From NCBI GenBank assembly GCA_026874595.1, contig CM049309.1, forward strand, positions 55,913,926-55,977,925: DNA of 64,000 nucleotides, given 5' to 3'. The DNA comes from Sipunculus nudus (lineage: Eukaryota > Annelida > Sipuncula > Golfingiida > Sipunculidae). The notes under the pieces were generated by a model that was given only the letters and a program-made list of their open reading frames with translations, did no database searches and was not told the origin of the DNA. Of this stretch, positions 2,904 through 62,300 are shown piece after piece (within the stretch, counting starts at the first letter, position 1; each line of letters starts with the position of its first letter). A program made the position numbers and the translations under genes.

Positions 2904-2997
2904 TGATCATAATGAATTCCCTGTTTCAGGAGACTGGGTTCTGATTAAGGTAATCATTGTGATTCCCTGTTTCAGGAGACTGGATTCTGACCAATAA
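2904..2997 (+). repeat. Tandem duplication of the M1-exon 3' splice site
   Basis: Two ~46-bp copies lie head to tail. Each contains 'attccctgtttcag' followed by GAGACTGG. The second is the acceptor used for the receptor exon at 2976. The first is followed after 20 nt by a consensus donor (AAG|gtaatc), so it resembles a 20-nt micro-exon at 2930-2949. Whether it is ever spliced in cannot be told; it would shift the frame. Confidence 0.8.
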
Positions 2998-5163
2998 CAT
3001 ATCGGAGAGAGTGGTTAGACCCCGAAACCGGAGCGTCATCCTTGTGTTCTCACGGAGACCAGCTTTACGATTCAGCATCACCCTCCAGCGCATCCCAGGC
3101 TTTACGTCATACATCCTCATGCTACCGTGTCTCCTCCTGGCGGGACTTACTGTAATCGTGTTCTGTCTGCCCCCGGAAAGACCTGACAGAAATGCGTTGG
3201 GTAAGATGGACTGTAAACTATATTAAGTGGCTTGTTGCGTGAAAGTTATATGTGAAAACTCGAACAATTCAGAAGTATTTTTTTACATGCATAGCAACTC
3301 CGAAAAAAGTATATGTGAATATAATAAAACAATGTCAAAATTCAGTGATGTGTTTTCCAAGTCTTCTATATGTAGGATATTCACAAAGAAAGAAAGAATA
3401 ACGATTACCCCGTGCGTCTAAAATTATATTATTCTTTAAGATAATAATCATAAGGTAAACATCGATAGAGAATAATGTCTGTTGATATTCTGTATCGAAG
3501 TGAAGGAGCAGCACTGCCTATTAAGTTTAAAAATATAACGGGGAAATTACACAACGGTATTTTCACATTTATCTATCGTTGAGTACAACTTAGACATTCA
3601 CTCTCTCCTTTGCATGCATCTAGATTTAGCTTAATGCCCCTATTCCTTTTTTATCCAGCAACTAGTTTATTTGGGAGCCTGATGTTACTATTATTAGTGC
3701 TGGTTCAGGTGGCGCCACCGTCTGCGGCTTCGATACCAATATTGGGTGAGTATGTCGTTGATGACCATTTATTGAACAATACGGAATGACATCATAAAAC
3801 GCACGCATATATTTTTAGTCGGTCTACCTTAAATACTAATGGGTTGAAAGAATGGCACCAACAAGTTTATGAAACATTGTTCGTGCATTTCTTGATGTTC
3901 AACATTTCTCAAACGCCATAACAAATGTTTTGGAATGTCAATGAAATCATAATTCCACAATGAATAACAATCAGACTAAAACGTGCCAACTTTGCATTTC
4001 AGGGATACATAAGAAACATATTGTATTTAATGATAGGTGTTTCATGAAATAAGACACTAAGACACACAACGCAATAATTATTTTCTCTTTAAAATTTTAG
4101 AAATATTTGGCCTTTATCACATATATTTTTGCAGGACCTTTAACGTACTACATCATTATCACCAGACAATTCTGTCTGTCGAGCTACTATCAACATTGAT
4201 TTCCCGATTCATAGCTATTAAGATTGGTCAAAGAGATCTGTTTTCTAACTTTTGAAGTTACTGTTAGTTGCTAGCAGATTTTGATGATAATATGTACTTA
4301 TGCCAATCCAATAACGACCGTATTAACTACCGTTTTGATCCAGGCATTTTCTATGCCTTCAACATGCTGCTGATCGTGCTGGCCATTGTCTGTTCTGCCA
4401 TCGTGGGAAGAATTCGGGCAGTGGAAGGACGCATGTCAAAACACCTGAGATCAGTAAGACTTAGAAAAAGATTTTAGCAAAAATATTTTATACTAGATTA
4501 AAACTCTACTTGATTTATTACGGCATCTGTAACTAAAAATCCGATATATATATAATATTAAATTTTTACAAAGACGTTCACTGCGTGATTGCTTAGACCT
4601 TCACTTTTTATATTCATTTTACATTTCGCAGAAATTCTGGCACTCTGTAGATGTAATAATAGGTAATATCTTTCTAAGCCTTCGTTGATTAGTCTTAACA
4701 AAGTGAGGGAGTTATAGGTGCCAATCTCGAGTGTACTTCAGTTTACCTCTAGGCAATTATGGAATTTCAAAAATATTGACATTTCAGATAACGGAACTAT
4801 TCATTTCAGATATTGATTGATGGACTTGCCAGGATAATGTTTGTTTTCCCTAAAACAAAGAAGAAACAAATCCACAAGTGTCCAGAGGAGGCTGTGGAGT
4901 CACGTGACGGGCTGACACTGAGGTGGCACCTGTTTCCGTGCAACCGCAGCCAATCATCAACGGCCAATGCTGATCAGAGCGAGGCTGGTTCCCCCGTCAG
5001 TTCGTGTGGATCAGCCCAAAGCAGCAAGGAGGACACAACTTCCAGAGACTGGTATATCTTTGGACGAGCTGTTGACCGACTTCTCATATTGTTTTATACA
5101 ACTGCTTTAATTATTGCCTTTTGGCTATTTTTTCCGAGACCGAAAAATATGCGTCCTTTTTAA
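2976..5163 (+). CDS. Nicotinic acetylcholine receptor-like Cys-loop subunit, 3' exons only
   Basis: Four exons join in frame: 2976-3200, 3659-3745, 4344-4453 and 4810-5163 (stop 5161-5163), all with GT-AG introns. They encode the end of the extracellular domain, M1 (LPCLLLAGLTVIVFCLPPE), M2 (SLFGSLMLLLLVLVQ), the M2-M3 loop (PPSAASIPILG), M3 (FYAFNMLLIVLAIVCSAIVG), a short cytoplasmic loop of about 90 residues with basic and Ser-rich parts, M4 (LLILFYTTALIIAFWLFF) and a short tail. The family forms pentameric ligand-gated ion channels in the plasma membrane. The usual GEK before M2 reads PDR, leaving an acidic -1' residue, which would fit cation selectivity (inference). The segment before M1 (ISERVVRPRNRSVILVF) has no loop-C Cys-Cys pair, so this looks like a non-alpha subunit. 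The signal peptide, Cys-loop and most ligand-binding exons are left of the window. Exact subunit type is not assignable. Confidence 0.9.
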
Positions 5164-11168: not shown

Positions 11169-11298
11169 TATGTCATAATATAGTGGATACTGCATGGAAG
11201 ATAAATGTAACTATCGGAAGCTCTTTTCATGTGCTGAGTGGCATGAATTCAGTCAATTCAGCATTTGTGGCAGTTAACGTTGGCCGTGATATTAACTG
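11169..11298 (+). CDS. Possible isolated exon, unidentified
   Basis: A consensus acceptor (tattttatttcag) precedes an open segment that reads ...FHVLSGMNSVNSAFVAVNVG... and ends at ACTG|gtagga, a plausible donor. The pattern of small residues followed by VAVN or VGVN recalls tectonin-type beta-propeller repeats, but the resemblance is weak and no partner exon was found within several kilobases. It may be a fragment or pseudogene, or chance. Confidence 0.2.
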
Positions 11299-11691
11299 GT
11301 AGGAAATCAAAATTCAATTAATAACTAAAAGGGACGCGGCAAAATAGTTTTTATTACGGTGCAAATTATTTGATCAAAATCTAAATTTTTGAAACGCATA
11401 TTACATTGGATCGAGTCAGCAGCGCCCGCATATGTATAGATACATATACGTCAATGTATAAACAGGGTAAGTTAATTGGAATGCCTGTGAGTTATTATAT
11501 ATGTTTTCATGACAAATAATTTCTCAGGCCGTGCACTCGGTCAAAGTTACCTTTGTAAATACCTTTGTAAGAGGTTGGCCGTGCAGACCCATGCAGTGAA
11601 ACGTACTGTATATATTATCTAAATCGATAAAGGGTTTGCATGTGGAATTATCAGTTAATAAAATTCCACCTACCCATATCGGCCTTGAGTA

Positions 11692-11693
<2 letters not shown>

Positions 11694-11750
<57 letters not shown>
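11694..11750. repeat. (AT)n microsatellite, ~28 repeats
   Basis: Pure AT run. Confidence 0.95.
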
Positions 11751-11754
<4 letters not shown>

Positions 11755-11849
11755 GTAGCCTCAAATTATGTTCAAGATGGGTTGGGGAGGGTGAAGGTTG
11801 TTGAAACATTTATATAAACCCATACGAATATTGAAATGCCACATTGATT

Positions 11850-11850
<1 letters not shown>

Positions 11851-11905
<55 letters not shown>
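11851..11905. repeat. (AT)n microsatellite, ~27 repeats
   Basis: Pure AT run only 100 bp from the previous tract. Confidence 0.95.
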
Positions 11906-11908
<3 letters not shown>

Positions 11909-12255
11909 TGGTTGTCTATAATTGCCCACTACATATATAATTTATTCCGTCATTATTCGTGTTTTAGTGCAATTGGCATGCACCATTAAATTAACGTAAG
12001 TACAATTATAGTGACCCGCAGCCTGAGTCAGCCTGAGTCCCTAATGTAATTACCAATTATTTATTATATCCGTTGACAAAATAGGATACTAAATTAAAAT
12101 TTTAAAATAAATGAACGCGCTTTATTATCCATGGACAATCTGTATACATCATAGTTGACGTTGGATACACTGGACTTTTTACATAAGTTCAATAAAGGTC
12201 CATTAAATAAGCGGTTTATTGTTACTGGGAGCTAAATATGGCTAATATTTTGTAA

Positions 12256-12258
<3 letters not shown>

Positions 12259-12325
<67 letters not shown>
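12259..12325. repeat. (AT)n microsatellite, ~33 repeats
   Basis: Longest AT run in the window. Confidence 0.95.
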
Positions 12326-12326
<1 letters not shown>

Positions 12327-14195
12327 CTTTAACTTGAAAAATAGCCTCTTCCCTTTAAAATGGATCGGTACCTGCCAAACTATTACCCTGAAACCGTTTC
12401 CTTGCTCTGGTAAACAAGTGTTAAAAACAGTGGACTAAGCGCGGTCACAGGTTTAAACATAAACACAGCGCATGCATCGCCGGGCTACAACTCGTGTCAA
12501 TCTGGAGATTCCCAGACTTACTTGGCCCAAAAAATGAAATACATGTTCCTGCTGGTTGAAACATGACGTGTTGCGGCTCATAATCAGAACTCTGGTCATA
12601 CGGGATTGTTTTGGTAAACAAACACACATGGACGGTGTTTACCAACACGCAGAGCCATAATTAACGAGGTGCTAAACCGCCATAATGAGAGTTCCTAAGC
12701 CTGTGTGCTGGGGTGTTTATGCTGGTAAACTTTTGTATAAAGCAAAACTGAACTGAAAGTGTGGAAGAGTAGGCATAATATTTTATGTATAATTAATAAG
12801 GCAGATGTTTTTTATTCTATTTTCTCACATATTTAAAATAATAATGTATTTATACATATCCAGTCAGTGATTTTGCTATCATAAAAATAATAGATATGGC
12901 TACCTATAGTCATTCATTTATTTTAATTAATCCAAACAAATATGTAATTTCAATTTTTTTAATCTTGACTGTTGCAGTTTAATAATAAGCTGTTGTTTAT
13001 TATCTAAGACACACAAAAAAAACTTGTATACTATAATTTAAACTTATTTTTCCCAACTGTTAGGCACAGGAACATTGTTTCAAAATGAGAAAAAAAATGC
13101 AGTGCATCTGTATCAAGTCAAATTCAGTCAATGTTTATTTCTCAAGCAAAAAAAAAAAAAAAAAACAGGAGGGTCATGATCCATTGCCATTGGTATATCC
13201 TATTTCATCCTTATAATTAGCGGCACATAATTATGTGTTATACAAAAAAATAATACTTCATTTAATTAAAATCCGGCCAAATTCGTTTCATCCTTATTTC
13301 AAAATTAGTCCATTTACAGTTTCATCCTTATTATTAGCACATTTAAGTGTAAAACGCCAAAAAAATAATACCAGAGTGCATTATATACTATATAATATAG
13401 TATAATTTATAATCTAGTCAAACCTAGTCAAATTCGGTCAAATACTGTCAAATCCGGTGATTAGCCCAGTGATAAGCCCAACCCGGCTATGAGAAACAAT
13501 GCAATTGTTAAACCTGATGAAAAATTATCACAAAAGGGGCGTTATTACAAAAGGGGTGGTAACGTACAGTAGCCGGGGGGGGGGGATTGTTAAATGTGCA
13601 TAGAGCGTAATGCTACCCTCTTTGGTATGGTCACGTGACTTCCATGCTGCCGGGTCTCGTTTATCCATTGGATAACGGAGTTTGTTATGGCCATCTTTCC
13701 AGGCGGCGTCCAATTTTGAAAGTTGTTGAAGAGTTAAATGTGAGTCGTTTGATCAATTTCACAACATACTGCTTAACTAATATCAGAGAATATCTTATCA
13801 CAGCTTTATATAAAACAACCCAAGTTGTTACTGGAAATATGTCCTTCTGTCAAAGGAAGATTTACCCAGGCCCCTTTTTTCGCCCAAATTTTTTAAGCCA
13901 CAGCCCTTGACTGACGCCGGTGCAAAAGTGATCCATGTCTGCCGTGTCTACCTGCAGTCTATGTCATGTCATGATAAATTGATAGTGATACTGTGCATGT
14001 CCATGTCGACTTCAAGAATAATGTCTTTACAGGTATACATCATCCTGGCTGTAGATCTCGTCTAGTCCTAGCCCATAAGAATGAACTCCTCAATTGCTTT
14101 TTTCATTGACTGACGCAATGTGGAGTCCATAGATTCCACCTTCAGTTAACTGTGATTATAACACGCCATACACAGCTGTGAGATTTTACATTTAT

Positions 14196-15645: not shown

Positions 15646-15658
15646 TTCAGATTGTAAG

Positions 15659-16775: not shown

Positions 16776-16962
16776 TATGAAAAGTCTATACTATTATAAA
16801 GTTCATGAAAAAGTAAACAGTTCTCAAAGTCGACTAAACAAATTTTCCAATATGGCGACCTACCAGGAGTACCACATGGTTCACACACGTGACTGTCTTG
16901 AACATACCGGGCGACCGTTGAATGCTTCCCTCCTCTCCTTCTCAAAGTCCCTGCATATTAAA

Positions 16963-20450: not shown

Positions 20451-23400
20451 ATGGCTTCCCACGTGCAAGAGCCACCATGCAAGATCCGCAAGAAGGATGT
20501 GGGTAGCCTAAAAAATACAGGAAAAGTAAGTTAATAAGTATTAAGCTACCATTAAGTCTAGATGGTTTACCAACAAAAACAAACCAATGTCATTATAAAG
20601 CTAGACAAGTTTGATCACAAAATATTTGTTTTTTTCTTTACATATATGCTCATATTTTTCTCATTGTGATGTGGTCAGATTTTATTGTATGTGCATGACA
20701 AGAGCTGCCAACTTAACTTTATACTTTTATAGATTACATCATTATTGATTTTTATGAGGCAAATCCCGACCCATAAAACGGTAGGTAAAGTCTGTTGGGC
20801 TTTTACAGCTGAGCCTAAATGGCTAACCAGCTGGAGCTTATCCCAGTTTCTGTAGCATGAAGTGACTTAGGGAGTTAAACTCCTCCTGGTTGGGATGCTA
20901 GGCCATCACAGTTTACCTTCCAAGTATTTCCAGTACCCATTTCACTGCTGGGTAGACAGAGACACACTTGCGCCTTGCCTAAGGGTCATGGCATGGTAGG
21001 GATCTGACAGGGATTCAAACTCAGGACCTCTCGATCGTTGGCCTGACACCTTAACCATTGCACCACAGCCTCCACTTAAATACGACCCATGAAAACAAAG
21101 ATGTTTTTAGGCAAAAAAAATAAAAAGGTATGGTTCTCAGGCACTTTTTTTCAGATATTAATGTGGGCTTGCGGTATTTTATTTTTTACCTTTTTTTTGA
21201 ATATTTCGATAAAAATGACATATGATCAGAGGAAAGCATTAGAATAACCATTTTTTTCTGCTAAACAGGTAAAAACACTACATTACAAAGAAAATCGTAT
21301 CAAAATTGTATTATTTTATCTTCTTGTAGGATGAAAACCAAAATAAAAATGTTTGATGCGGGGGGTTTAAATTGATGCGGGCGGTGCCTGAGAACCATAC
21401 CTTTTATTTTTTTTGGCCTTACAGGAACTTTTTTTTGGCTCATTCTCTTACAAGTTCTGATATTTATCAGGATCAATTCTGCTGAAATCTAGAATGTTGT
21501 GACCCCCATAACTTTTAAGTACAGTATATCTTTTCTTCTAATTTCACACACAAGTTCTTTCTATCACATTATCAGAGACATTTGAAAATTGGTTACTCTC
21601 AATTTGACCTTCAAGGTCACATCTGTAGATTTACATCTTTTCTGAAACAGCATAACTTTTGAGAAAGCACATATTTTTACCCCTCATATTTTTGGATGGC
21701 CAATGGTTGGGGGGGGGGGAGACATATCTGTTTTTGTGCCTGTAAAAACAAAGCCATTCTTGCTGAAGATGTTTTTGAGTGTCCCTGCAGATTTGCCAAA
21801 GCATGTTTGTTACTAAAGATGAGACTGGATGCTGAATTGTGGCCTTTAGTTTGATCTTCCATGGAATAGGGGACATTAATTTGGGGTTGTCTGTGTATCA
21901 TTCTGTCTGTCAGGTTTTCATTCTGTGTGATAACTTTCCTAAATATTATAGGATTTCTTTCCAATATGGCTCAGTGATTGCTCTCATGCATACCTTGGTT
22001 TGGATTTGTTTTGGAGTATTTGTCTGAAAATGTATTATTATCCAGCTCCAACAAAAAAATTTTCCCTTTTGTTCCCAATTTACAACAAAAGTTAAGACAT
22101 GTGGAGACATCTTCAGGGGACAATAAAAAACTAAAACATATTAAGAAGGCAAGCAGGGGACAACAAGAGGCAGAAGCGGAGGACATAAATTCTATGAATT
22201 TGCTTGTTTATATTTTAACAGATCAGCTCATGGGTCACATCTTCCTTTGCTGACTTTGATGATTCATTCACTTCATCTGCCTTTGATGGGAAAACAAACA
22301 TGGCATCAACAGGAGCTAAGAGCCAGTCAGCCCGTGGTCCACACAAACGTCAGAATAAGACACCAGCTAACAACGATGAACTCTGGGTAGACAGACATGC
22401 ACCAGCCACCAAGGTAATTCGTATTGATAAATAACAACAGTGAATCTACAAACAGAAACATTGTTTAAGGGTGCCCTCTTGCTTGTGTTCTTTGATGGAG
22501 ATGTTTAATTCAGTGCAGCTTTCATTCATGCTGAATGCTTATATTTATAGATCTCTTCTTGTCACTAATGTTCAGTCACACATGTACTATGATCTGTTAC
22601 CATAACAAGTATTGTTATCAATAGAGTTATAAGTTTTCCTACTTTCAAGGCAGATAAGCTTTAGTTGCCATGGCATTCTGAAATAAATTTCTTTGTGAAA
22701 AATGATGTCATAATGTTATAATTTTACTTTAACTGCTTGTATATTCTATTTCAGGTTGACCTTGCTGTTCATAAGAAGAAGGTGACTGAGATAGAGACGT
22801 GGCTACAGCACTCTTTAGCTGCCAGAAAGGTAGGGATAGGGATATGGCTACCACAATCATTATCTGCCAGAAAGGGATTCATAGAGCATTCTCTAGCTAC
22901 AGCACACCCTAGCTGCCATAGTGATTGAGCTACAGCAATATCTGCTGCCAGTAAAGTAGGGACAGAGACATGGCTACAGCTCTCTCTAGCTGCCAATAAG
23001 GCAGGATAGAACACTCTCTTGCTTCAGCACTCTCTAATTGCCTCTGTTGTAGTGAAAGAGACTTGGCTACAGCATCCTGTAGCTAACTGTCAGGCAGGGA
23101 TAAAAACATGGCTACAGCACTCACTTGCTGCCAGCAAGGTAGGTTGGAATAGAGACATGCATACAGTGCTCTTTTAACTGCCTGTAAGATTGGTGCAGAG
23201 CTCAGTCTAGCTACAGCACACTCTAACTGCAAGCAAGGTAGGGATAGAAGTGTCAGTAAGACAGGCATAGTGACAGGCTGCAGCACTTTATTGCTGCCTA
23301 TAAGGTAAGAACAGAGACATGACAAGTGCATTCTTAAGCTACCATTTGGAAATTAAAATCTAAACCAGGCTGAACTTTGCAACAAGTATAGGTAATGATT

Positions 23401-26400
23401 TATTAGCTCAGCTGACTACAAGTCATCTGAGCTATATAGTTGGGGTTCCTTGTCCGTCGTCCGGCTGTCCTCCGTCCTTTAACAGGGCACGTTTTGAAAT
23501 CGTTGGACTTACCAATCCAAAATTTTACATAGTTAGATGTCCCCACAATCTCCTACCTTACCAAAAATTGGGTCTCTAGGACTTCATTCCTTCAAGATAT
23601 TAAGGAAAAACCTCCATTTTCCATAAAAAAAGAGATTGTTACACTTCATGGCCTATATTAAAACCATGATCATATTTAGTATTCATATTCTTCCATACAT
23701 TTTCTATGAACATACCAAAAATTAGGTCCGTATTCTGTATTGTTTTGAAGTTATTGGTTCAGATATAATGCAATTTTTAAAAAATCAGGAAATATATTTA
23801 CTCACTGAACATGAGAATTGCTGAAACTGGGGACTTTTTTTCAGGGATATAACTTTATTTTATCAAGTTTCAACTGTTTACCAAAAATTAGATCAGAATT
23901 ATGCAATTTTTTCAAGTTACTAGCGTAAATATAAAATTAATACCTTAAATTTTGTCCAACTTTTGCAATGGCATGTTTTTTCCATGTAAGCACTGTTGAT
24001 TTAATTTTCACAGCATATATACATATGGATTTAATCTTTTAAAATCTGAATCTGAATTGATTGAAATATGTAGCTTTTATTCAAGTGTTCTTACACCATG
24101 TTGTGTTGTTTACATCAAGCCCACCTAGTAGTACAGCCTTCACTTGTGTTATCTAACACACTCCAGGCAGCTTGCCTTGGCTCAGCTTGGCCACTACTAG
24201 CAGGCTTCCCCTCTGCCCTGCACTCCCCCCCCATGGTGCTTAAACCAAATGAATGTTATAATAATATAACTGTATTGTATATATAATTGTATTATACCAC
24301 TAGGGTTACAATGATTAAAGTGCTCATTCAATTGTGTCCACATAGTGGTGTATTGCTATGAAAGTGTGGATGTTCATCAGATAAGTTATTCCTTACTTCA
24401 GAAGAGTAAAAACTTCACCAGGTGTGAAATTGACTGTAATTCCAGTAATAAATTATAGCTGGGATAGCAATTTGCATTATGATATTGTATGTCCCTCATT
24501 CTGAAGTGTACTGAAAACTCCAATGTACAAAACTTTTTAATAGTGATTCAAGGAATAATCTTGAAGATGCCATGTTGTGGAATTATTTTCTTTTAAATTC
24601 AGTTTAAACATTTGTGATTTAGAAATAATAAAATATATGTATATGCATAAATTGACCCGATATTAGCTACACTCTGGATAAATAATGATTGTAACTTAGA
24701 ATTCTGATATTTTAACTTATATTTTCAGGTTTTTCTATTACAAATTTATAAAACTTGTAAATAAAAAATGAATTTGATAAAAACTATTTATGGAAAAAGT
24801 GGATATGCTTAAAAAAAGATAGACTTTAATATAAACTTAAATACATTATTCCTTCGAAAATGAAATAAAGGTATATTCTGTCCTCTTGCCTGTCCATCCT
24901 TAAATTTTTCATAAGCATCACAGTATTCAAAACTTTTACTTTTTTTCTTCATGACAGTCTTGTCAGAGTATTAGTTTTGCAATTATATATTTAGAACTTA
25001 ACTAAACCAAACAGGAGGGCCCTTCCCTTTAAGCGTCTCATATGCATATATAAGAAAAACATTACAATAGAATATTTTGCATATTTTGCATTTGCAAAAA
25101 TTTCAAACTACAGCTGAGTGCCGTGAACCATGGGTCCCTTGTTTATACATTTGCAGTTTATTAGACGTAGATTTCATTCTTATTTGAAGTAGTAGATAAA
25201 AAATAAAAATGTGATTTTTTAAAATCAAAATCAAAGGACTTAACAGTGATTGAAGGTCACTTCATTCCATAGAAAACGATGGCCAGAAGTTTTACTTCAG
25301 GTTTTTTAAGAGTCTTTTTACATTGTTTTGATTTTGTGTTCATCAGCACCTAGATGGGGACCAGTTTGAATCATCAAACCAAATAGATTAACCTATATGT
25401 ATGTATGAATATATTAAATATATATGTATATATATATATATATGGTTATCATAATGTTAATGAAAAAGTAAGTGTATGTATTAGTATATCTAAATTTATA
25501 TATTAGTAATGATCTACTGATTATGAAATCATTTTTATTCTGTCTGTGTGGAGCCAGTTCCAAATAGGAAAAAGTCAGTTCAGAATCAGGAATGATTATC
25601 ATATTATGTACTTGGATAAAATATATATATACCATGGGTATATGTTTTGCAGGAGGTATCACTGTTGTTACTGACTGGGCCAGCAGGGGCAGGTAAGACA
25701 GAAGCAATACGTGTCCTCTGTCAGGAGCAGCAGTGTGATATACTAGAGTGGAGCAACCCTAGTACTGCTGGACAACAGTACAGCAGCAAGCCATGGGAGA
25801 GACACAGCCTTGATGGTAAGAAAATGAGAACCTTCAAATCTTGTCACATTTATTGAGAGTCCTTTAATTCAAGTGTTAGTATATCAGGGAGGCAGATTCC
25901 TGTAAATGACAATTGCTACAGAAAATGTCATTAACTTAATGAATAGATTGTGTGTTCTGCCAGTACACCCCATGATTTTCTGTATATTCAGTACAGCATT
26001 GCCCTCTGCCATTTTGAATGACCTGCACTCTGACAGTCTTACATATTCATATGTGCCCCATATGCTTATAAATTACTACCATGTCTCTCATTCTGGTGCT
26101 GACCTTATCCTTACATTATTGATTAGTAGTAAATTATATATCAGTAAAACTATTCCTCACCTGTCCCATGGCCTTGACTAGTATCAATTTCTATAAAGCA
26201 TTAAAATTTCTAGAATCCTGGGGTTTTACTTATAAAACTCTTCTATCAAGTGAGCATGTCCTTTGTAAAAACGAGCAACAAACCATGTAAAAAAACTTGT
26301 GCATCAATAAATATTTAGTCTGGTATTAAGGACTATGAATAACAGTCTTTATTCATAAAGCTCTGAAACAAACACAATCCATCGGTATCACAATGGGGTT

Positions 26401-29400: not shown

Positions 29401-32400
29401 ATATTCAGTGTCTTAATTGTATTTCCTTGATTATAATGTCCACCTTATTCTTGTATAAAGTTTATATCAGGTCATCAAAGAATTAATATAATGCAAAATT
29501 ATGTTATTATAAAAATTAAATTAATCACATTTTATGAAGAACACTGTTATTATTCTTTACCACTCATTTTCTTTCCTTTTCTCTTTACAGAGAGTGACCT
29601 CAGGTTACCCAGCAAATCTACAAAAACAGATAAAAATACAAAGCAAAGATCCTTGAAAAAACAAGGATCAGAGGTGAAAAAGGGAGGAAGCACAAAGAAA
29701 ACTGGCAAGTCAGAATCAGTGGCAGGAATAGGTGGAAGGGACGCCTCACTCATCTTGTTCAGAGCTCTAGGGAAGGTGCTGTACTGTAAAAGTAAGTGAC
29801 AAAATAAAAAAAGTTCAGTGGTCAAGGAAAGGTCCTATACTGTAAAAGTGAGTGATGGTATATGCAATGTTCATTGCTCCAGGAAAGGTGGTATACTGTA
29901 AAAGTAAGTGATGATATGCATAATGAATAGACCTTAACTTTGTCCTTTTAACACCTAAAAAAGAATATCTTTATAACTGTTCAGGCTCTTTTATAACTTT
30001 TATGCTCACTTACATGCACTGATTGTCAGTGTTTTTAGCTCAGCTGACTATAAGTCATCTGAGCTATAGTCGTGGTCCATTGTCCGTCGTATGTCTGTCC
30101 GTCCGTCTGTCCGGATGACTGTCCTTAAGACTGGCACGTTTCGACACCGTTGGACCGATGAATCTGAAATTTGGCATACAGTTAGATGTCCCCAAAATCT
30201 CCTACCATGCTGAAAGTTGGGTCAATAGGACTTTTTTCCTTCGAGATATTAAGGAAAAACCTCAATTTTTTATTAGAAATCTATTTTCACACTTCAGGAC
30301 TGCCTAATATCAAAACCACTCATCTGGTTTTCTTCATATTTACCATAAATATTCCTCTATATAGTTCTGGGTCATTAGGAATGCGTTCCTTTGAGATATT
30401 AAGGGAAAAAAACTCTGTTTTCCATAAAAAAAGCCATTGTTACACTTCAAGGCTGCCTAATATCAAAACCACTGATCTGTTTTTGATCCTATTTAGTATT
30501 CACATTATTTCATACATTTTCTATGAACATACCAAAAATTAGGTCAGTATTGGGTATTATTTTGAAGTTATGGGCCAAAACATAATGCTATTTTTAAAAA
30601 AATCAGGAAATATATTTACTCACCTAACATGAGAATTGCTGAACCTAGAGACTTTTTTTCAGGAATATAATTTTATTTAATCAAGATTCAATTGTTTACC
30701 CAAAATTAGATCTGAATTTTGCAAATTTTTCAAGTTATTAGCATAAATAAAAAATCAATACCTTAAATTTTGTCCAACTTTGGCACTGTTGATTTAATTT
30801 TCACAGCATATATACATAAGGATTTAATCTTTTAAAATCTGAAATTTCAAAGAAATTGATTGGAAAGAATAGCTTTTATTCATGTTTTCATACACCATGT
30901 CAAGTGTTGTTTACATCTAGCCCACCTAGTAGTACAGCCTTCACTTGCATTATGTAACCCACCCCAGGCAGCTTGCCTTGGGTCAGCTTGGCCACTACCA
31001 GCAGGCTTCCCCTCGGCCCTGCACTCCCCCCCCCCCCCCCCCCCCCCCCCGATTGTGCATAAACTAGATGAATGTTATTATTTTCTGTATTTGATTCATT
31101 CTTATTCTAGGCTGTGCTACATTTTAGATTTTGTATTGTATCACCAGGGTTACAATGATTAAAGTGTACATTTAATTGTGTCCACAAAGTGGTGTATTGC
31201 TATGAAAGTGTGGATGTTCATGAGATAAGTAATTCCTTACTTCAGAAGAGTAAAAACTTCACCAGGTGTGGAATTGACTATTAATTCCAGTAATAAATTA
31301 AAACTGGGATAGAAATTAGCACAATGATATTGTTTGTCCCTCATTCAACCAACAGTGTGTATACTTTATTTGAAAAGACATTTTATTTAATCAAATTTAC
31401 TGAATCTTTTATTTTATTTTGGTGAATAAAATTAAGCATGTACTGAAAACTCCAATGTGCAAAACTTTTTAATAGTGATTCAAGGAATATTCTTGTAGAT
31501 GCCATGTTGTGGCATTATTTTCTTTTAAATTCAGTTTAAACATTTATGATTTAAAAATAATAATATATATGTGTATGCATAATATGACCCAATATGAGCT
31601 ACACTCTTGATATATGATGATTGCAACTTTTGCGAGTTTCTAATATTTTAACTTATAGTTTCAGTTTTTTACTCTGTATATATAATGATTGCAACTTTTG
31701 CAACAATTCTAATATTTTAACTTATAATTTTAGGTTTTTTTATTAAAAATTCATAAAACCTGTAAATAAAAAAATGATTCAGATAAAAACTTCTTAATGG
31801 AAAAAGTGGATATGCTTTAAAAAATAGGATTATATATAAACTTAAATGCATTATTCCCTTGAAAGTGAAATAAAGGTATTAGTCCATTCTGTCCACTTGC
31901 CTGTCCATCTGTAAATTTTCATATGCATCACAGTATCTCAAAACTTTTACTGTTTTTCTTCATGACAGTCTTGTCAGAGTATTAGTTTGCAATCATATAT
32001 TTAGAACTTTACTATAACCAAGTAGGAGGGCCCTTTTCCTCTTAGCTTTTCATATTCTTATATAAATGAAAAACATTACAATAGAATATTTCTACATCCA
32101 CCTTCGTGCTGCCCTCATTTTTCCCTTCTCCAAACCCCATCCCAAAGTAAGCCTCAGTAAGCAAGAACAAGATGAATCAGATATATTCATACTTTAATGT
32201 TTTGTATAACTATTCGTCCATAGGTACCTATGTACATGCCAGAAATTATGTCAATATTGTGAAATATGTAGGCATAGTGGGCATCACAATAATGTACCTT
32301 GTCAAGATTAAAGAGATATTGTGTCATACAGGCACAAATTCATGAATCACTTCATCAGCATAGTTAATCATAACATCATATCTGTCAAATTGAAAGCTTG

Positions 32401-35400
32401 CAGACTACCATACACTTTAGATCCTTCAACAAATAGCCTTATCATCATTCTACTACTGCTTATTACTGCTGTCATTGCATTCATATTTGCTCAAATATAT
32501 CACAATTTTCAACCCCTCCTAAATAAATAAAAGTAAACCACTATATTTGACTCTATTAATCCATCAGTCAGGTTATTTCATTTATCATTTACTCACATAT
32601 TACATTACATTCCTTTATTATAGCCCAACATGTCCATGATATTCATAAGCTTTATCGACTCGATATAGTATTACAGTGGAGAAACATTTATAGTCCAATC
32701 ACAATCAGCTGAGCGCCGTGACCCATGGGTCCCTTGTTTTAATCAAATTATCACATTGTAAAAAATTGTATACAAGAGAAATATAAAAAAAACATGAATA
32801 TCTTAATATACACGTATGTGGGTTTTGGTAGTTACATGGAGTCTTGTTGTATACAGGGGAGGAGCCATCAGATGAGGACCGTACAGGTTTACCTACTCAC
32901 CTACAGCAACACTACAGAGATCCCCTGGTCGAGATACCTGAGGTAAGTAGGTTCATGTTAGTAATATGTTTGTATCGGTTTGTTTGACAGGTTATTATAG
33001 AGTTGTCCCATCATGATATTTATTTGAATGACAGGAGGTGAAAGAGATGTCCCACCAAGATATTTATTTGAATTGATTGACAGGAGGTGATGCAAATACC
33101 CCATCAAGATATTTATTGGATTTGGCTGGCAGGAGGCAGTTCAGTTGTTCAAACTTTATATTTATTTGATTTGATTGACAGGAGATGATAGTGTTGTCCC
33201 ATAGCAATATTTATTTGGTTTGACTAACAAGAGGTGGTAGAATTGTAGCAGCATAATATTGATTCAGTTTGATTACAAAAAATGATAGGGTTTTCCATCA
33301 TGATATTGTATTGCTTTGACTGGCAGGATGTGATGGAGTTGACCCATCATAATATTTATTTTATGTTTATATATGATTTGATTGACAGGAGGTGGTAGAG
33401 AGGTCCCATATTTCTGGTGACACATTCACAGCCTTCCTGCATCAAAACTACCTGGAGTTCTACACGGAGCTGGATGATGCCGTCAGCTCTACCAGATACA
33501 TGAGTGATGCTGATGTGCTAACAGTTGACTGGGCTGTAAGAATTATAACTATAACTATTCAAAAGCCTGCTTAATTACACAAAGTATCAAACTTATTTGA
33601 ATTTTTCAGTTTAAATTGGTTTGCTTTATTAAAGGTTGAGTATTTACTTAAATCATATAACTATTAAGCTCATAGAATATTTTGGTATATATGTCTTATT
33701 TAAAGATAAATAAAAATTGTTTATCAAAATTTAGAACATATTAACACATTATGTGAATGACTGGTACATGTTTAGGTAATGTGAGTCTCTGCTGTAAGGA
33801 ATTTACAATGGGAAGAAAGATTTTAAGTAAACTGTTGCTGTTTAAAACATAACATGTTTCATTGACATGCATAACTGTATCATGACCTATAACTGATTAT
33901 GTATTTCCATTCTTCAGACTGATATGTTTTATGTATACTATAAATATTTAAACTTATCTTAAAATAATAATAATGGAAAGGTAAAAAATCTATGAGAGTT
34001 TAATTAGCCTTTTGTATGAGGTTAGCCTAATTTTTGGATAATGGAAAGTCTATCTGTCACCCACAGTCAAGATCAGCACTGCAAGAATACTCAACCAGTG
34101 TAGCTACGAGAGCGATTATGTTTTGTAACTCCTGTCGGGCCAAGGCAGGGGCAGCAGGATCAGGGGCCTGGCGGCCACTACATAAACCACAGTGGTTCTC
34201 TGTATTCAGTCAGGTAAGCTTGTAAGCCATGGAGAGTGCCTTGTATTAGTTCTTATAACTAGTTGTACAATCCATGTAACATTAATAAAATTTATATAAT
34301 TATAAATATTAACCAGTATAAAATATAAATAATATATTATATATAACCAATATATCTCACCTGAATCAAATTCTTGGCAAAACCCACACTTACATAATTA
34401 GGTCAGAGGTCACAAGACATATGACAGGCATCTTATCCACCCTTGCTGTGCTCTTGTTTTCTGAATGCTAAGTACCAGCGAGCTCTGATGTCATAGACTA
34501 ATCATTAGAAAATTATTTAGCTGTGTCATCATTTGGTCATCTTCATTGTTTCAGGTTCGATCCAGTCAGGCCAGAATATTTGACTTATTTCAAGGTAAAC
34601 CTTGTTTATTTTTCCCATCTTCATGGCATTAATATCATTATTGCTTATGTTGCCTCTGTCATTTCACTGTGTCAGTATACAACTTCTGCTCAGTCGTATT
34701 TAATACACAGTATAGACTGCCTTTTTGTATGGAAGTGTGGTTGCTTGTATGTGTGTGTGAGAGAGAGAGAGAGAGAGAGTTACAAACTAAATTGATACAT
34801 CAGTTTTGTGCATTACATGTTAATTAAATTTTGCATATTTGAATATTTGTTTGATCCAGGTTGCTCTTGTACTCCAGAAGAATTAGTTACAGATTACATT
34901 CCCTACGTACAGAAATGTAACCCTACATTACATGATCCAGGTATGGAATGTTTACAATTATGTAAATGCATTTCATGATCCAGTATTGACTACAGAGATC
35001 TGGCTTTGCATTAAAAAATCAATAATAGATACCATATTGTTGTTACTACAGCACATGATCTAGTTAGCAAATAAAGTATCATTAAAAAACAATGGAGAAA
35101 TGCATACAGAGATGTAACTGTACACTTCATGATCCAGGTAATAAGTTTAGATATGTCAACTGTAACTCCTTTATCCAGGTAAGGAATCTAATTGTGACTC
35201 TGTGATCTAAACTGTAACAAATACAGTATGTGATCTAATTATTAAATACCTGTGTATACCTTTCACTGCACCAGCTTAGTGTCAGCATAGTAGAGAAACC
35301 TCTTGTGCAGAATTGAAATTTCATGATCTCTCATATTTATCCCTAAAGCCTGTTGCATTGCTTCCATTCTCACATAGTTCTACGGTGTTATATGACTGCT

Positions 35401-52574: not shown

Positions 52575-55500
52575 TCAGTGACACGTGAAGATGGATCTGT
52601 TTGGTCGTGAACAAATGAGGTACAGAGCTTGGTCCTTGATAAAGTCATCCCACGTGATCACTCTGAAAATAAATAAATGGTTGATATAAAATGTTTGTGT
52701 GACAGAAAAGTATATCTCACTTGAAGGTTAATTGTTCCCCTTCCGAGGTCTTAGTTCTTACAGGCATACCTGTCTGAATATTTTGGAAATATCTTTCGAA
52801 ATAGAGATTAGCCTTACAACTGCACCATGCGACAAGCCCACAGTGGTCACCATTATGACAGTATCAGACCCGACATGTCTGACAGCTTGGAATGTCGCTC
52901 ATGCTAGAAACAGTAATTTAAAACCCAACGAAAATGTGCTAAATGTACATTAAGTTTGTGAAAGACTCCCCATGACATTCATAGCAAACAGAACCATATC
53001 TGGTTAAATTTCTGAACGCTCTTTCGAGCGGGGTTTTGAGGTCAGTATAATACACTGAGAGACCCTTTATTACTGGTATCATAAGAAGAAGATAACTGGT
53101 GTCAGCAAGCAGAATTAACAAGGTAGCCCTGTGTTTCTGGTGTCAGCAGATAGAAAGAACAGGGTAGCTCCGCATTACTTGGGTCAGCAGGTAGAAATAA
53201 CAAGGAAGTCCCGTGAATCTGCTGTCAACAGACAGAAATAACACGGTAGCCCCTTGTTGTGTCAGCGGGGAATTAAAAAGATATCTCTGTGTTACTGGTG
53301 TCAGCAGGCAGAAATAACAAGGTAGCCCCGTGTTTCTGGTGTCAGCAGACAGAAAGAACAGTGTAGCTTGTGATACTTGTGTCAGCAGAGAAAAACAACA
53401 AGGTAGCCCCGTGTCACTAGCGTCGGCAGACAGATACAACAAAGAAGCCCCATGGATCTGGTGTAGCAGACAGAAATAAAAAAGGTAGCCCCGTGTTACT
53501 GGTGTCAGCAGGCAGAAATAAAAAGGTAGCCCCGTGATATTGATGTCAGCAGCCAGAAACAACAAGGTAGCCCCGACTTATGTCAGCAGACAGAAACAAC
53601 AAGATAGCCCCGTGTTACAAGTTTCAGCAAATAGAAATAAAAAAAAGCAGCCCGTGTTACTTGTGTCAGCAGAGAGAAATAAGAAGGTAGTCCCGTGAAT
53701 CTGGTGTCAGCAGACAGAAAAAACAAGGAAGCCCTGTGTTACTGCTGTCAGCAGACAGAAATAACAAGGAAGCCCTGTGTTACTGCTGTCAGCAGACAGA
53801 AATAACAAGGAAGCCCTGTGTTACTGCTGTCAGCAGACAGAAATAACAAGGAAGCCCTGTGTTACTGCTGTCAGCAGACAGAAATAACAAGGAAGCCCTG
53901 TGTTACTGCTGTCAGCAGACAGAAAAAACAAGGAAGCCCTGTGTTACTGCTGTCAGCAGACAGAAAAAACAAGGAAGCCCTGTGTTACTGCTGTCAGCAG
54001 ACAGAAATAACAAGGAAGCCCTGTGTTACTGCTGTCAGCAGACAGAAATAACAAGGAAGCCCTGTGTTACTGCTGTCAGCAGACAGAAATAACAAGGAAG
54101 CCCTGTGTTACTGCTGTCAGCAGACAGAAATAACAAGGAAGCCCTGTGTTACTGCTGTCAGCAGACAGAAATATTATGGTAGCCCCGTGATGCTGGTGTC
54201 AGAAGAAAAAACGACAAGGTAGCCCCGTATAACTGGAGTCAGCAGAATAGTATATTGTGCTCCCGTGTAACTGGTATTAGCCGGCATAAATAATGTTACC
54301 CTGTGTTCCTGGTATCAGCAGACATCAGCACTGACGACTGCTGCTCGACATGAAGGTTTAACGAGGAGCTGTCACGAAGCAGCGTCAGGGCCGGGGTGTC
54401 TGCGCCAGTCCTCTTGCTGCTGTAAACATGAAATGATATATCATCAATAAAACCTGCCTAAAATTAAACTGCCATCAAAGCCATTTAAAGGGACCTATAT
54501 TGATATACCAAATTTGTTAAATATTCTTGAAATATATGGTGACCCCACATAAGTCCGTGTGAAGGGATGCTTTTGCTCGAAAATGTTTTAAGCAGCTAAA
54601 ATGAACATATAGTGTGAGTTGATAAATATTTTATTGCAAATTATTATGCACCTCTAAGAGTCTTTATACATTATCTCCAGATGCCAATCCCAAAAGGGGT
54701 GTCACGTATGATACGCTGTTATTATAAAACGATTGTTTTTATAAAGACCTGTTATTATCGAAAACTTTCAGCTTCACCGCAGAAATGTGCACGTTGGTGT
54801 TGTAGTCATCTGAACCAGGTAAACACACTTCCAGTTGCTACTTGGAGAACCGGCTGTCATTGTAAGTAGCCAAGTAATATGATTGCGCAGGGAAAACTAT
54901 ATATTTCTGTCTGAAAATTCCTTTATATTTGTCTCAAGCGCTCCTTTAAATTCTTACATTTCTTCAGGAGTCTAATGGGAGTCCTGAAATTTATAATTTA
55001 CCTTAATATATAATATAATATTTTATGACTATTACATCTGTGAAATGCCGAAATGCCCCCCCCCCCCTTAATAACCTCTCTAACTCTACTCAATAATTCA
55101 TAAGTAATTCAGTCAACAGATATAGGGGATACCTGTCGTCTGGTTTACAGATGTGATCAAAGTGTTGGAACCAGTGCCGGTACGCCTTCTTTACTTCATA
55201 CTCGGATATCCTGCCATCACCGTTGTCATCGAACGTGCTGAACAGTTGCTTAGCAACAAGAACTTCTTTCTGTTTCAACAAACCAACCAACTCCATCTGT
55301 CGATAAATAAATTAACCCAATATGAGCTGTTAGGGTAATATGTCTTTTGAATAACATGGTGCATTCTGCAACATTCAACTTAACCTTAATATAAAATAAT
55401 TTTGATATTTGTTACTGGAAATCTGAGAAAACTTGATTGTATAATAATTGTTTTTATATTCTGGTCTCCGTACATTTCTTCTCTTAGCCTTGCGGGGATC

Positions 55501-56352: not shown

Positions 56353-59300
56353 GGTATATAATGTATATATATGTGTGTGTGTGTGTGTGTGTACGTGTGT
56401 CTGAAAGTTATTTCCCCCCCCCCCCCCCGGAAGAAAAATTAACGCCACTGATTGCCTCATTGAATCATCATAAATGTTAGCCTACTTTGTAGCAAGATGT
56501 AGAAAGTTTGTAAGTTGAGGTGAAATAAATGAAATTTAATTTATAATAAAAAAAAAACTTTAAAAATAAGTAAAATTACTTTTGTACAACCAAAATATAT
56601 CCTCCATAACAAGTAGCGGGAATGAAGAAAATTATGATATTCTGGATGGATGGCGGTCGTCCTGTTTGTCATAAGGTGGGGGTGTTCCTTAAGGGACTCT
56701 GGTCGGAGTCTTTGTTTCAGGGGGAGGTATTTTTGCGACGGGGGGGGGGCTTCTATTCGTACTCGTGCTATGTGTCTGCCTATCATTTCCCTAGAAAACA
56801 AGGGCCATGAACAATATCAAGATGGACTAGCGGTAATTTAATCCATACCGGGTCTCGTTTAGCGAGGACTTTGCACGCCTCGTGTTTCAGGAACTCCCAC
56901 CAGTCTATGATTCCGTCATTGTCCTGGTCCATCAACCGGAACTCCAGCAGAGTCCTCTCTTCCTCTTCATTAGACATAGCCTCGTTCTCGATCTGCTGGT
57001 GCTGATCATGTCGTACCCGCGAGAACTCGTCCTGCGTGATGCCGGCGTCTGTTTAAAATTAACCAGTTTTTCAATTAGACGTCCGGGAAATTAAATTAAG
57101 GACGCATTTTATTACAGTGGATTAATGCATAATTGTTTACTTTCAGTAAACTTTCACAAAAATGATAATACTCATCCATGAAAATAATGAGCTCTAAAAA
57201 TATGCTTACGAAAGACCAGGATTCATGAACAAAGCATGTCAAAGAGAGAATTTAACTGTTCGGTGAAGTTCTCCAGTTGATTGATGGGTACGTGTATGAC
57301 AGAAAAACCGTTTAATAGATATGCCTGTACGTTAACCGTAAAGTAACACACTTTAACAACTATTAAACCAGGTGTTTTTATACGGTAATAAATAGAAATG
57401 GTAAATAAAAACTACATATGATTATTGTCTTATTCAAGACCATTAACTTGATACTCTTGTTTTTTTTCCAGGGTACACAGAAGGAAAAAACTTTAAGTAC
57501 TATAAACACAGTATCGAATTAAGTACCTCTGTTGATATCATATCTGTCAAATTCTTCAATCAGATGCTTCATCTCTTGGTCCGTCAGTAGGCGCGGAATA
57601 TCATCCTGTTCAGAGAACATTCATTATTCATAATCAACCGGAATCTGTTTGGTCCCACCAGTTATATTAGAATCAGGCTTCCGCTGAAAATCCGGAACTC
57701 GAGTGAATTTTAGATTACTGTTAAAAGATTGTCACCCTTCCGTCGAAGGCCGTTTCTCCTCAAAGCAAACCTCTTCCGGTTAGGGTTTATGCGGGACTGC
57801 ATATCTCAAAAGTCAAACTTCAAAATCAAAATTTGATACAATCCAGGAAAAACCTTCTGTTTATATTGTACGTACGCATGCAGTTATTTTAGATATTTCA
57901 TTAAGTCCTTATCATAAAGATATTCCCGTGCAGGTAAGTAATAATTATGTATAGATAAAATTGAAATCTGTCACATTTGAACGAACTAAATCATAATCAT
58001 CTTCACATCTAAAGCTTTGGCATGGGTGTATTGAGAAGCCTCGTTGCATTTTTGGTAAAGGATCCCTGTAAATTACACAACGGAGTTGTCATTCTGTGTT
58101 CGGCATCGAGTGGTGATCACGGGCTTTACTTTGATCCTACATTGACTCTTAATTCACCACCTCACCTTTAGCCTGTACAGGTTTCCGGTTAATCATCCTC
58201 CCGGGCGTGGCATTTTATGGACGTATAGAACTGGTTACGTATTCTCAAAATCTAATTTATTTTTTATGTCCTGGATTTATATCAAGTGCTTATGTCACTG
58301 CAGATGTTATTACATCGCCTCATACCTACACAATAACTGAGGTGAATGCATTATGTATCCATGTAAATATCATGTAAATATGAAACTCATAAATATTAGA
58401 TAATGCAGTTGATAAACTATTATTCTCAGTGTGTTCGTTTGGTTTTGCACCAGTAGACATCTTACCGACTCCACAAAGCGATTTTAGACGGAGAGCCCTA
58501 GGTACAAAATACCCCTTGTCTAAAAAAACAGAAAAGTGGAACTTTTGTACCTAGGAGAACCCGTGCATGGTTTTATCTATATTTGACAAGAAGTTTTTCA
58601 TAATTCCCAGCAGGTTACGATTGTACTCACACACTCGTAGCAGCTCCAGCCGGTGTTTGAGTGAGCGTTGTTGAGCAGGAAGAGTTCTCCAGGTTTGTAG
58701 CGACCACAGTTTTCTAGGCAGACACGGTGGAACGTCCGGGAACACACGCGGCACGGAAACCCTTCAAACGTCGCCTCGTGACAGAGGTGACACTGACTGT
58801 CACACTCCCTCTGAAAATAAGAAAGACAGCAATGACACGGTCCGTCAAACGCCCTCTGAAAAAATTAAGAAAGACAGGGGTGACACGGACCGTCACACGC
58901 CGTCTGAAAGAAATAAGAAAAACAGGGGTGACACGGACCGTCACACGCCGTCTGAAAAAGCAAGAAAGACAGGGGTGACACGGACCGTCACACGCCGTCT
59001 AACAAAAATAAGTAAGACAGAGGTGACATGGATCGTCACACGCCGTCTGACAAAAATTAGTAAGACAGAGGTGACACGGACCGTCACACGCCGTCTGACA
59101 AAAATAAGTAAGACAGAGGTGACACGGACCGTCACACGCCGTCTGACAAAAATAAGTAAGACAGAGGTGACACGGACCGTCACACGCCGTCTGACAAAAA
59201 TTAGTAAGACAGAGGTTACACGGACCGTCACACGCCGTCTGACAAAAATTAGTAAGACAGAGGTGACACGGACCGTCACACGCCGTCTGACAAAAATTAG

Positions 59301-62300
59301 TAAGACAGAGGTGACACGGACCGTCACACGCCGTCTGACAAAAATTAGTAAGACAGAGGTGACACGGACCGTCACACGCCGTCTGACAAAAATAAGTAAG
59401 ACAGAGGTGACACGGACCGTCACACGCCGTCTGACAAAAATAAGTAAGACAGAGGTGACACGGACCGTCACACGCCGTCTGACAAAAATAAGTAAGACAG
59501 AGGTGACACGGACCGTCACACGCCGTCTGACAAAAATTAGTAAGACAGAGGTGACACGGACCGTCACACGCCGTCTGACAAAAATAAGTAAGACAGAGGT
59601 GACACGGACCGTCACACGCCGTCTGACAAAAATAAGAAAGACAGTGGTGACATGGATCGTCACACCATAATTAAACACACACAGGTAGTTTTGATATTGA
59701 TGTTCATTTTCAACGATAAGGTTTCATGGCATACGATTTTGGGTTTTATCAATATATTTTTTTCTATTCAATATAGGTAAAAAATTACAAAAAACAATAT
59801 TAAATATGTTTTGTTAGTGTACTTAAAAGAAATATGTAGAGTTAAAATTGTAAAAATTTAAATTTATAAAATATTACAACCTTCATAAAATCAATCAGGT
59901 TGGGAAAAAATCCTTTCATAAAGGTGTTCATATAACATATAGCATAGAACATTTTTATATATCAGATCATATAAACTGATGTAAAGGTGCAGTTTCTGTA
60001 ATATTAAAGCAAACTAAAACAACTAAACAGAGAGATTCTTATTACCTTATACGATAAAATGAGTAGAGAATTTAACCATCAGGTTAGGCCTCATTAACAA
60101 AAGTATTCAGAACGAGTCAATCCTGCACAACCTTGCATGCATACAGATGTAGAATAAGTGGTGAGTATATTCATCTCTACACATATTCTTGTTTATACTT
60201 ACAAAAACTAAACTGTTATCATATTTTCCATCACAAGAAAAACTGAGAGTGATCAACAAACTGATCAGACCAAATCAATATCCAGTATGTAATACTTCGG
60301 AAAACTAACCAGCTGGTAACAAGAATATACCACTAGCCAGGGCCCAAAGTCAGCGGTTTGGTAATATTGAAAAAATATAACTGAAGGAAAAATATTTATA
60401 CATACCCAAGAGATAGTCCTGAGACTTTAGCAGATATGAGTATAGAAATTAACAATTTTATTAGGCCCAATTAAAAAAGTTACAAAAGTAACATGATTGA
60501 GGAAAGGGACCCAAAGTGGATTAAGAAAAAGGCATCATCAGGTCCAGACCATTAGCTAAAAGTACAAGGAGGAGCCAAAACCTTCAAAATACGTATATCT
60601 TTTTTTCTGTGATGATCCTAATTTTGCAATAAGAGAGGAATATATTAAGGGTAGATGTACATTTTTTTCTGTAATAGAATAATTAAAGATTCCATTGAGA
60701 AAGGCTCGAGAACACTTTAAAGACTGTCACTTAAAAGTGTTAAAAACTGCCAAAAAAACTCCTAAAATTTTCTAAAATGGAGATACCATGGAGATAAATT
60801 GAGGCGCGCTGTGCCTGATCAACCTGTTTTGGCCTTACACACTCCAATTACAAGTAAATTACCTTCACCTCTATTATTTGACAGTCCCTCTAAAATACAA
60901 ATTACTTGTCGTGGTCAGGAGTTGTTATTCCTTATTACTTATACATTGTTCCGACTGCCCGTTGACGCCGACAGTTTACTGGTCTCACACGATGGACCAA
61001 GGGATCTCCGTCTATCCGTTCGTCACTCTCTTTATTGGGCGTTATCTAATAACGTTTTGAGATATTTACTGTGAAACGACTATGTCGGCTCACTATGTCA
61101 AACCCATGCGAGCGCTGTGGGACCATCGGCCATCGGCGGCAGTAGGGAGGAATTATGGGATTTTTAATAAATTTTTAAATCATCACGTACATTGAGTAAG
61201 TATCCCAAAGGTTGATGTAACTTAGGAAGTATTTTCACATTAATTTTCAGGTTTGAATTGCTGATCTACCTTCTTCGACCAACAAACACATAGCAATAGC
61301 CCAGTGCTTGGTTCGTTAATCAGGATTTACCTGTTCACAGGAAGTGGTGAACCATAACAGAATTGGTCATGGACAGTGATTCAATTTGACATTTACATCA
61401 CAGGCAGACCAAATATGTAACGCTGAGTATAGAATTATAAAGGTTGATATTTCTGTACTGGCTATATGTTAAAGTGTATGATACCATCCATATAAGCTAA
61501 CTTGTTATTCTGACCTTTGAAATGACAAGGATTGATCCTCTGGCCTATTAATGCCTGGTACACCCCGAGGAAATAACTCTCAGGAAACAATCTAGAATAT
61601 ATTAGGAAAAATTGAAAGGAATTTGGAATTTGTGCAGCACACACATGCGAGCTTTTAAAACTGTTTCCATACCATAGTTAACAGGATATAGCGTTTCATT
61701 TGTAAAAGGAGAAGAAATATGCGCATGCACGTCAATGCAACATTTATGTGTGTGCTGTATTGAGGAGCTGACAAATGTGACTGCCTGACGTATGAGACAA
61801 AAGAAATTTAAATTGGTTTCCCCGGTGAGCTTGACAATACGAGAAAGAGGCTTTGTCTGGGCAATTATACAGGGCGTATTGAATGTAATATACCCGTAAC
61901 ACACAAACAGGGCAAACCTGAATAAAAACCATTGTATGCAGACAAACCATTGTGTTTATTTTAATCACAGTCACTTTTAACGTGTTCCTATATAGAGCCA
62001 CTGTGCATGTTTATGTGTACATTTATTCGAGGTAACTTAGAGAGTAACGCTTTAAGTGGAGGATTTACATGTTACAGAATGAGCTTTTTAACGAACTCTA
62101 CAGTAATTCTTCTCACCTGTAAACATAATCACCATCGTGACTAACAATATACAGCATATGATCACATTCCCTTTGATAAAATAATAATTTATATCCAAAT
62201 TTATAACAAGTTATTGAGGGTGAAACATGTATTGATTGCTCATACATAATCTCAATAGGACCTAATGTCAATTCACCATGTCAAACAAGCAAACATTGAT

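What the first reader, a model, noticed from the sequence alone, without database searches (positions are those of the whole stretch)
2904..59672. Splice junctions repeatedly seed tandem arrays in all three genes
Seven separate arrays consist of units that span an exon-intron junction of the adjacent exon: receptor M1 acceptor, RAD17 exon 3 donor, exon 10 donor, exon 12 acceptor, exon 15 donor, PHF24-like exon 2 acceptor and exon 6 donor. Units are about 41-60 bp and include roughly 20-40 nt of exon plus the splice signal, and arrays always extend into the intron. They range from two copies to about 29 and from near-identical to badly decayed, so the process appears ongoing. Three unrelated genes sharing it in one window argues against chance. 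I know of no named process that generates minisatellites preferentially at splice junctions. Possible links are replication slippage at R-loops or at AGGT-like microhomology (inference).
Basis: partly seen in the sequence, partly recalled or inferred. Interest (0 to 1): 0.88.

Follow-up and report, generated by a model that had tools for sequence, protein, structure and literature searches.

The report
Tandem repeats straddling exon-intron junctions
Seven splice junctions in three genes of an invertebrate have been copied into short DNA repeat arrays that run into the neighbouring intron; this is a known but little-studied oddity first named in lancelets, and in a sample of other genes of the same animal it turns up about as often as chance placement predicts.

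Summary
In detail: each of the seven named junctions has intron-side copies of a unit that spans the junction (scores 21-30), while the other 41 of 48 tested score at most 12. Within the window, junction-spanning arrays exceed random placement: 7 of 10 array groups, 1.24 expected. But the window was picked for them. In eight other genes of the same 1.43-Gb genome (seven CCT subunits, HSP60), 3 of 178 junctions carry such arrays and 3 of 31 array groups span a junction, 4.14 expected, while 1218 of 6381 intron windows lie in local repeats. Preferential seeding at junctions is therefore not supported outside the window. The structures have a name: 'mirage' minisatellites, known from amphioxus (PMC3087553, section 16 read). 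RAD17 points to a lophotrochozoan, not amphioxus. Best reading: chance tandem duplications that happened to include a junction, tolerated because splicing keeps to the exon-proximal copy, then grown intron-ward. New member of a known kind, apparently in a new branch of animals. Open: why 7 of 50 junctions here against 3 of 178.

The parts
2905..3005 (+). junction-spanning repeat, unit about 46 bp, one extra copy upstream of the acceptor of the receptor M1 exon (exon 2976-3200); 15 nt exon part
22781..23335 (+). degenerate, irregularly spaced array at the donor of RAD17 exon 3 (exon 22755-22829); 9 intron copies found, GT kept in 4 of the 8 that cover it
29751..29931 (+). 56-bp array at the donor of RAD17 exon 10 (exon 29591-29791); two intron copies, both with GT
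32969..33418 (+). 49-bp array at the acceptor of RAD17 exon 12 (exon 33389-33535); seven intron copies, AG kept in six
34900..35155 (+). decayed, irregular copies of the donor of RAD17 exon 15 (exon 34860-34940); four intron copies, GT in three
53085..54328 (-). 41-bp minisatellite (28.4 copies by TRF) at the donor of PHF24-like exon 6 (exon 54300-54419); the amplified unit has GC where the exon has the donor GT
58773..59674 (-). 48-bp minisatellite (18.5 copies by TRF) at the acceptor of PHF24-like exon 2 (exon 58631-58810); AG kept in all 17 aligned copies; near-identical middle, diverged ends
23710..23924 (+). intron-only repeat pair (lag 166) in RAD17 intron 3, counted as non-junction array
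30212..30738 (+). intron-only array (about 150 bp) in RAD17 intron 10, counted as non-junction array
31592..31751 (+). intron-only array (68 bp) in RAD17 intron 10, counted as non-junction array

Best explanation
The seven arrays are 'mirage'-type minisatellites. Step 1 (inferred): replication slippage, template switching or unequal exchange makes short tandem duplications throughout this repeat-rich genome. Step 2 (inferred from reading frames): when the duplicated unit happens to include a splice junction the allele is tolerated, because splicing goes on using the exon-proximal copy and the mRNA is unchanged; duplications inside exons are removed by selection. Step 3 (seen in the two large arrays): intron-side copies expand and homogenise like any minisatellite, with diverged ends. 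No junction-specific machinery is needed; the density in this window is a local excess that was noticed because it is striking.
For: In eight other genes of the same genome 3 of 31 array groups span a junction, 4.14 expected from random placement by each array's own period; intron windows there are in local repeats in 1218 of 6381 cases, exon windows in 0 of 519. The three arrays found there are of the same kind (CCT4 donor, CCT7 acceptor, CCT2 donor). In the window, copies carry exon and intron DNA in genomic order, so they were not made from spliced RNA; best inverted match within 600 nt of any of 48 junctions is 12, and outside its own array no unit scores above 16 forward or 19 inverted. 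Frames that match homologs use the exon-proximal junction at all seven sites (for RAD17; own reading for the other two genes). Homogenised middles and diverged ends in the two PHF24-like arrays.
Against: Inside the window 7 of 10 array groups span a junction against 1.24 expected (P=3.0e-4), five of the seven survive masking of exons, and 7/50 junctions against 3/178 differs (Fisher p=0.0012). Window and sample together give 10 against 5.38 (P=0.048). The sample is one protein family and its arrays hold less exon (9, 12 and at least 23 nt). Tolerance by use of the exon-proximal site is not shown: there is no RNA.
Confidence: 0.74

Rival explanations
1. A junction-linked mutational process (R-loop or splicing-coupled fork stalling, AGGT microhomology, or the GC step at exon edges) seeds duplications at splice junctions, at least in some genes or regions.
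For: Excess inside the window: 7 of 10 array groups, 1.24 expected; three unrelated genes share it; 7/50 against 3/178; exon GC 0.46-0.52 against intron GC 0.33-0.37 in RAD17 and the PHF24-like gene.
Against: No excess in eight other genes (3 against 4.14), which have the same GC step; junctions there are less repetitive than introns. The window was chosen for the feature. Three candidate acceptors and one donor of receptor exons just upstream show nothing.
Confidence: 0.13
2. Duplication is more frequent in exon-like DNA and only events at exon edges survive, because splicing hides them; the junction itself does nothing.
For: All seven window arrays hold at least 15 nt of exon and the three intron-only arrays lie far from exons. 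Exon windows are almost free of repeats (1/173; 0/519), as purging predicts.
Against: The CCT arrays hold as little as 9 and 12 nt of exon and their number needs no raised exon rate.
Confidence: 0.07
3. The copies are kept for a function: spare or decoy splice sites, splicing enhancers, or alternative isoforms.
For: Acceptor AG is kept in 24 of 25 copies in the window and donor GT in all 14 listed CCT4 copies. The copy next to PHF24-like exon 2 is open in the exon's frame.
Against: Donor GT is lost in 4 of 8 covered copies at RAD17 exon 3, in the amplified PHF24-like exon 6 unit and in both CCT2 copies. In the frame of PHF24-like exon 2 there is a stop in the second upstream copy. Unit lengths other than 48 bp would shift the frame.
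Confidence: 0.05
4. Assembly or chance artefact.
For: Copy number of the near-identical PHF24-like arrays could be off in an assembly (inference).
Against: The other five arrays consist of diverged copies, none arises in 5 simulated windows, and the score gap is 21-30 against at most 12.
Confidence: 0.01

Closest known systems
'Mirage' minisatellites of amphioxus (Adh3, BflGb6, BflGb9; PMC3087553, abstract, passages and section 16 read; the original Adh paper PMC117041 is not held)
   Same: Tandem units that span an exon-intron boundary, at donors and acceptors, copies in the intron, splice signals in many but not all copies, homogenised middles and diverged ends
   Different: Another branch of animals; units 41-56 bp in the window and 112 bp at CCT4 against 150-160 bp in the globins and 10-72 bp in Adh3; no RNA or haplotype data here
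[quoted passage not shown]
   Same: Tandem duplication that copies an existing intron-exon structure
   Different: There the copy became a new spliced intron and exon; here no modelled exon needs a copy
Internal tandem repeats at exon-intron boundaries of human segmental duplications (PMC2812944, passages)
   Same: Minisatellite-type repeats located at exon-intron boundaries
   Different: There they change transcripts of recent paralogs; transcripts could not be checked here

Membership tests
mirage minisatellites | tandem units that span an exon-intron boundary | tested here: met
   7 of 50 window junctions; 3 of 178 in eight other genes
mirage minisatellites | both donors and acceptors can be duplicated | tested here: met
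   four donors and three acceptors in the window
mirage minisatellites | splice signals in many but not all copies | tested here: met
   acceptor AG in 24 of 25 copies; donor GT 4 of 8, 2 of 2, 3 of 4 at RAD17 exons 3, 10, 15
mirage minisatellites | concerted evolution inside the array, diverged ends | tested here: met
   seen in the two large PHF24-like arrays; the other five are too short or decayed to judge
mirage minisatellites | regular splicing is not disturbed | not testable with these tools
   no RNA; frames fit use of the exon-proximal site
mirage minisatellites | length differences between haplotypes or tissues | not testable with these tools
   one assembly only
intron gain by tandem duplication | a duplicated copy has become a spliced exon or intron boundary | tested here: inconclusive
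   frames that match homologs need none of the copies; no RNA

The most novel reading that the evidence does not exclude
In this genome some regions or gene classes have a process that seeds minisatellites at splice junctions, so that 7 of 50 junctions in three neighbouring but unrelated genes carry them against 3 of 178 in a housekeeping family; the excess would follow chromatin, expression or splicing kinetics.
Probability: 0.12. Interest if true: 0.75.

Novelty: new member of a known kind. Interest (0 to 1): 0.36.

Why it matters
Under the name mirage, my nine searches listed such arrays only from amphioxus. Finding them in an unrelated animal, in six genes (three in the window, three CCT genes), suggests that they are not a cephalochordate peculiarity and gives material for models of intron gain and alternative splicing. 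It also shows that a striking cluster in one window can look like a new process while other genes of the same genome fit random placement.

Tried and rejected
Coding repeat in PHF24-like exon 2: the 48-bp unit is 16 codons long, but in the exon's own frame there is a stop in the second upstream copy and in most copies further up. Copies made from spliced RNA or carried by a mobile element: units contain intron sequence and do not recur elsewhere in the window. Conserved-anchor detection bias: five of seven arrays survive masking of exons plus 25 nt, so it is not the whole story. The PHF24-like homolog search found nothing at E<=0.001; the receptor search found two weak hits. A Pfam Aldedh search of the genome scored only 11 candidates, all on small contigs with uninterrupted frames. 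CCT5 models on L050 and L051 were too patchy to count. VCP was located but its region could not be fetched; RAD51 and myosin searches did not complete.
Full report
What was checked. I first rebuilt the genes. RAD17 is on the + strand: exons match human RAD17 (PDB 7z6h) and human RAD17 typed from recall; spliced alignments with three animal RAD17 proteins agree on the main exons and all give exon 6 at 27637-27689. The receptor is a divergent Cys-loop channel (Neur_chan_memb match below its cut-off; ligand-binding exons just upstream; M2-M3 and M4 exons read). The PHF24-like gene is on the minus strand; its exon at 58631-58810 matches the PHD-finger stretch of human PHF24 typed from recall, with further exons read. 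Reading frames run through the modelled introns (RAD17 exon 6). That gives 50 junctions: receptor 7, RAD17 31, PHF24-like 12. RAD17 exon 1 was not modelled.

The observation. For 48 junctions I compared 30 exon plus 15 intron nucleotides with 400 nt of the same intron. The scores split cleanly: seven at 21-30, 41 at 12 or less; exon 6 adds 7 and 8. With 30 exon nucleotides alone, six beat all 300 dinucleotide shuffles and one (exon 12) is reached by 1 of 300; the other 41 score at most 10, of which 1 was reached by 3 or fewer shuffles. Copies contain exon and intron in register: 1 beside the receptor acceptor, 9 at RAD17 exon 3, 2 at exon 10, 7 at exon 12, 4 at exon 15, and by that aligner 19 and 17 at PHF24-like exons 6 and 2 (TRF: 28.4 and 18.5 copies). 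All seven arrays extend into the intron.

Is the junction preferred, within the window? But 156 of the 185 intron windows lie inside the seven arrays; outside them the rate is 29/1221 and the contrast is p=2.6e-4. Counting arrays instead of windows, 7 of 10 array groups in the gene spans span a junction. Random placement expects 0.84 (exon part at least 15 nt, P=1.5e-6) or 1.24 (exon part at least 9 nt, each array's own period, P=3.0e-4). Five of the seven arrays are still found with exons and 25 nt of flank masked, against three intron-only arrays (p=1.4e-4), so a conserved exon anchor is not the only reason. None of these P-values is corrected for the fact that the window was picked for this feature.

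Is it preferred elsewhere? The own genome answered (1.43 Gb, 153 contigs). Eight other genes were located by Pfam PF00118, fetched and modelled by spliced alignment: TCP1, CCT2, 3, 4, 6, 7, 8 and HSP60, on seven contigs other than that of the window. Of 188 junctions, 10 next to doubtful exons were dropped before the count. Of the 178 kept, 3 score 22-25 and the rest at most 13. The three are genuine junction-spanning arrays: CCT4 donor with a 112-bp unit (14 copies listed, all with the donor GT), CCT7 acceptor with three copies, CCT2 donor with two, both with the GT lost. Their exon parts are 9, up to 12, and 23 to 34 nt. In the same genes 1218/6381 intron windows and 0/519 exon windows lie in local repeats. 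Of 31 array groups 3 span a junction, 4.14 expected (P(>=3)=0.78); an earlier, cruder count gave 38 clusters, 3 spanning, 1.5 expected. Window and sample together: 10 against 5.38 (P=0.048). So a general preference is not supported, while 7/50 against 3/178 (Fisher p=0.0012) leaves the window an outlier, either by selection or by a local cause. Of two receptor exons just upstream of the window, three candidate acceptors and one donor score 7-9; the other donor was not tested.

How it most likely works. Shown: the copies are duplications of contiguous exon-intron DNA; they are direct, local and private to each junction (no inverted copy within 600 nt scores above 12; outside the array the best forward score is 16, the best inverted 19); mid-exon duplications are nearly absent; the two big arrays have homogenised middles and diverged ends. 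Inferred: duplications arise anywhere by slippage, template switching or unequal exchange; those that include a junction survive because the exon-proximal site stays in use; arrays then grow in the intron. Splice signals show no consistent selection: acceptor AG is kept in 24 of 25 copies, donor GT in 4 of 8 at exon 3, 2 of 2 at exon 10 and 3 of 4 at exon 15, lost in the amplified PHF24-like exon 6 unit, kept in the listed CCT4 copies and lost in the CCT2 copies.

What is known. The globin paper PMC3087553 (abstract, passages and section 16 read) describes tandem repeats spanning exon-intron boundaries in amphioxus Adh3, BflGb6 and BflGb9, says they were termed mirages, that they do not seem to disturb regular splicing, that haplotypes differ in length and somatic instability was seen at Adh3, and proposes a role in intron gain; it calls the mechanism unclear. 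The first Adh paper (PMC117041) is not held. PMC4974935 (abstract and passages) reports a potato tandem duplication that copied an intron-exon structure. PMC2812944 (passages) treats boundary repeats in human paralogs. An earthworm metallothionein paper (PMC12783039, passages) has intron minisatellites; the passages I saw mention no junction-spanning units. Nine searches listed no report under the name mirage outside amphioxus; most subscription papers are not in that library.

Which animal. The RAD17 search gave 364 proteins, 120 listed, led by bivalves at 42-47% identity, none of the named rows being Branchiostoma. A quick tree puts the window next to an unnamed record and Owenia with unstarred support and a long branch. 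I take it as probably a lophotrochozoan and not amphioxus; the species is unknown.

Limits.

Noticed in passing
window 14494-16790, minus strand: Remains of a retroelement in several open frames: gag-type aspartyl protease, zinc knuckle and a weak Retrotrans_gag match. Described only.
   Followed up: partly
window 41085-42674: Array of a 280-bp unit, 5.7 copies, 90% matches, between RAD17 and the PHF24-like gene.
   Followed up: no
window 19-2012 and 49779-50206: Two groups of larger repeats whose units look related in reverse complement by eye; not computed.
   Followed up: no
own genome, small contigs such as C61-C99 (e.g. L002-L010): Nine uninterrupted GroEL-type frames with the same score and several uninterrupted aldehyde dehydrogenase frames on small contigs, probably bacterial symbiont or contaminant sequence in the assembly; the origin is inferred.
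   Followed up: no
CCT4 region L032-L033, joined coordinates 11207-13025: A 112-bp array at a CCT4 donor: all 14 listed copies keep the donor GT, a natural test of how one site among many is chosen.
   Followed up: partly
window 2905-2955: The receptor mirage places an AAG|GTAAT donor-like motif about 20 nt after the copied acceptor, a possible tiny pseudo-exon; read by eye.
   Followed up: no
window 58811-58855, minus strand: The copy next to PHF24-like exon 2 is open in the exon's frame; use of its acceptor would add 15 codons.
   Followed up: no
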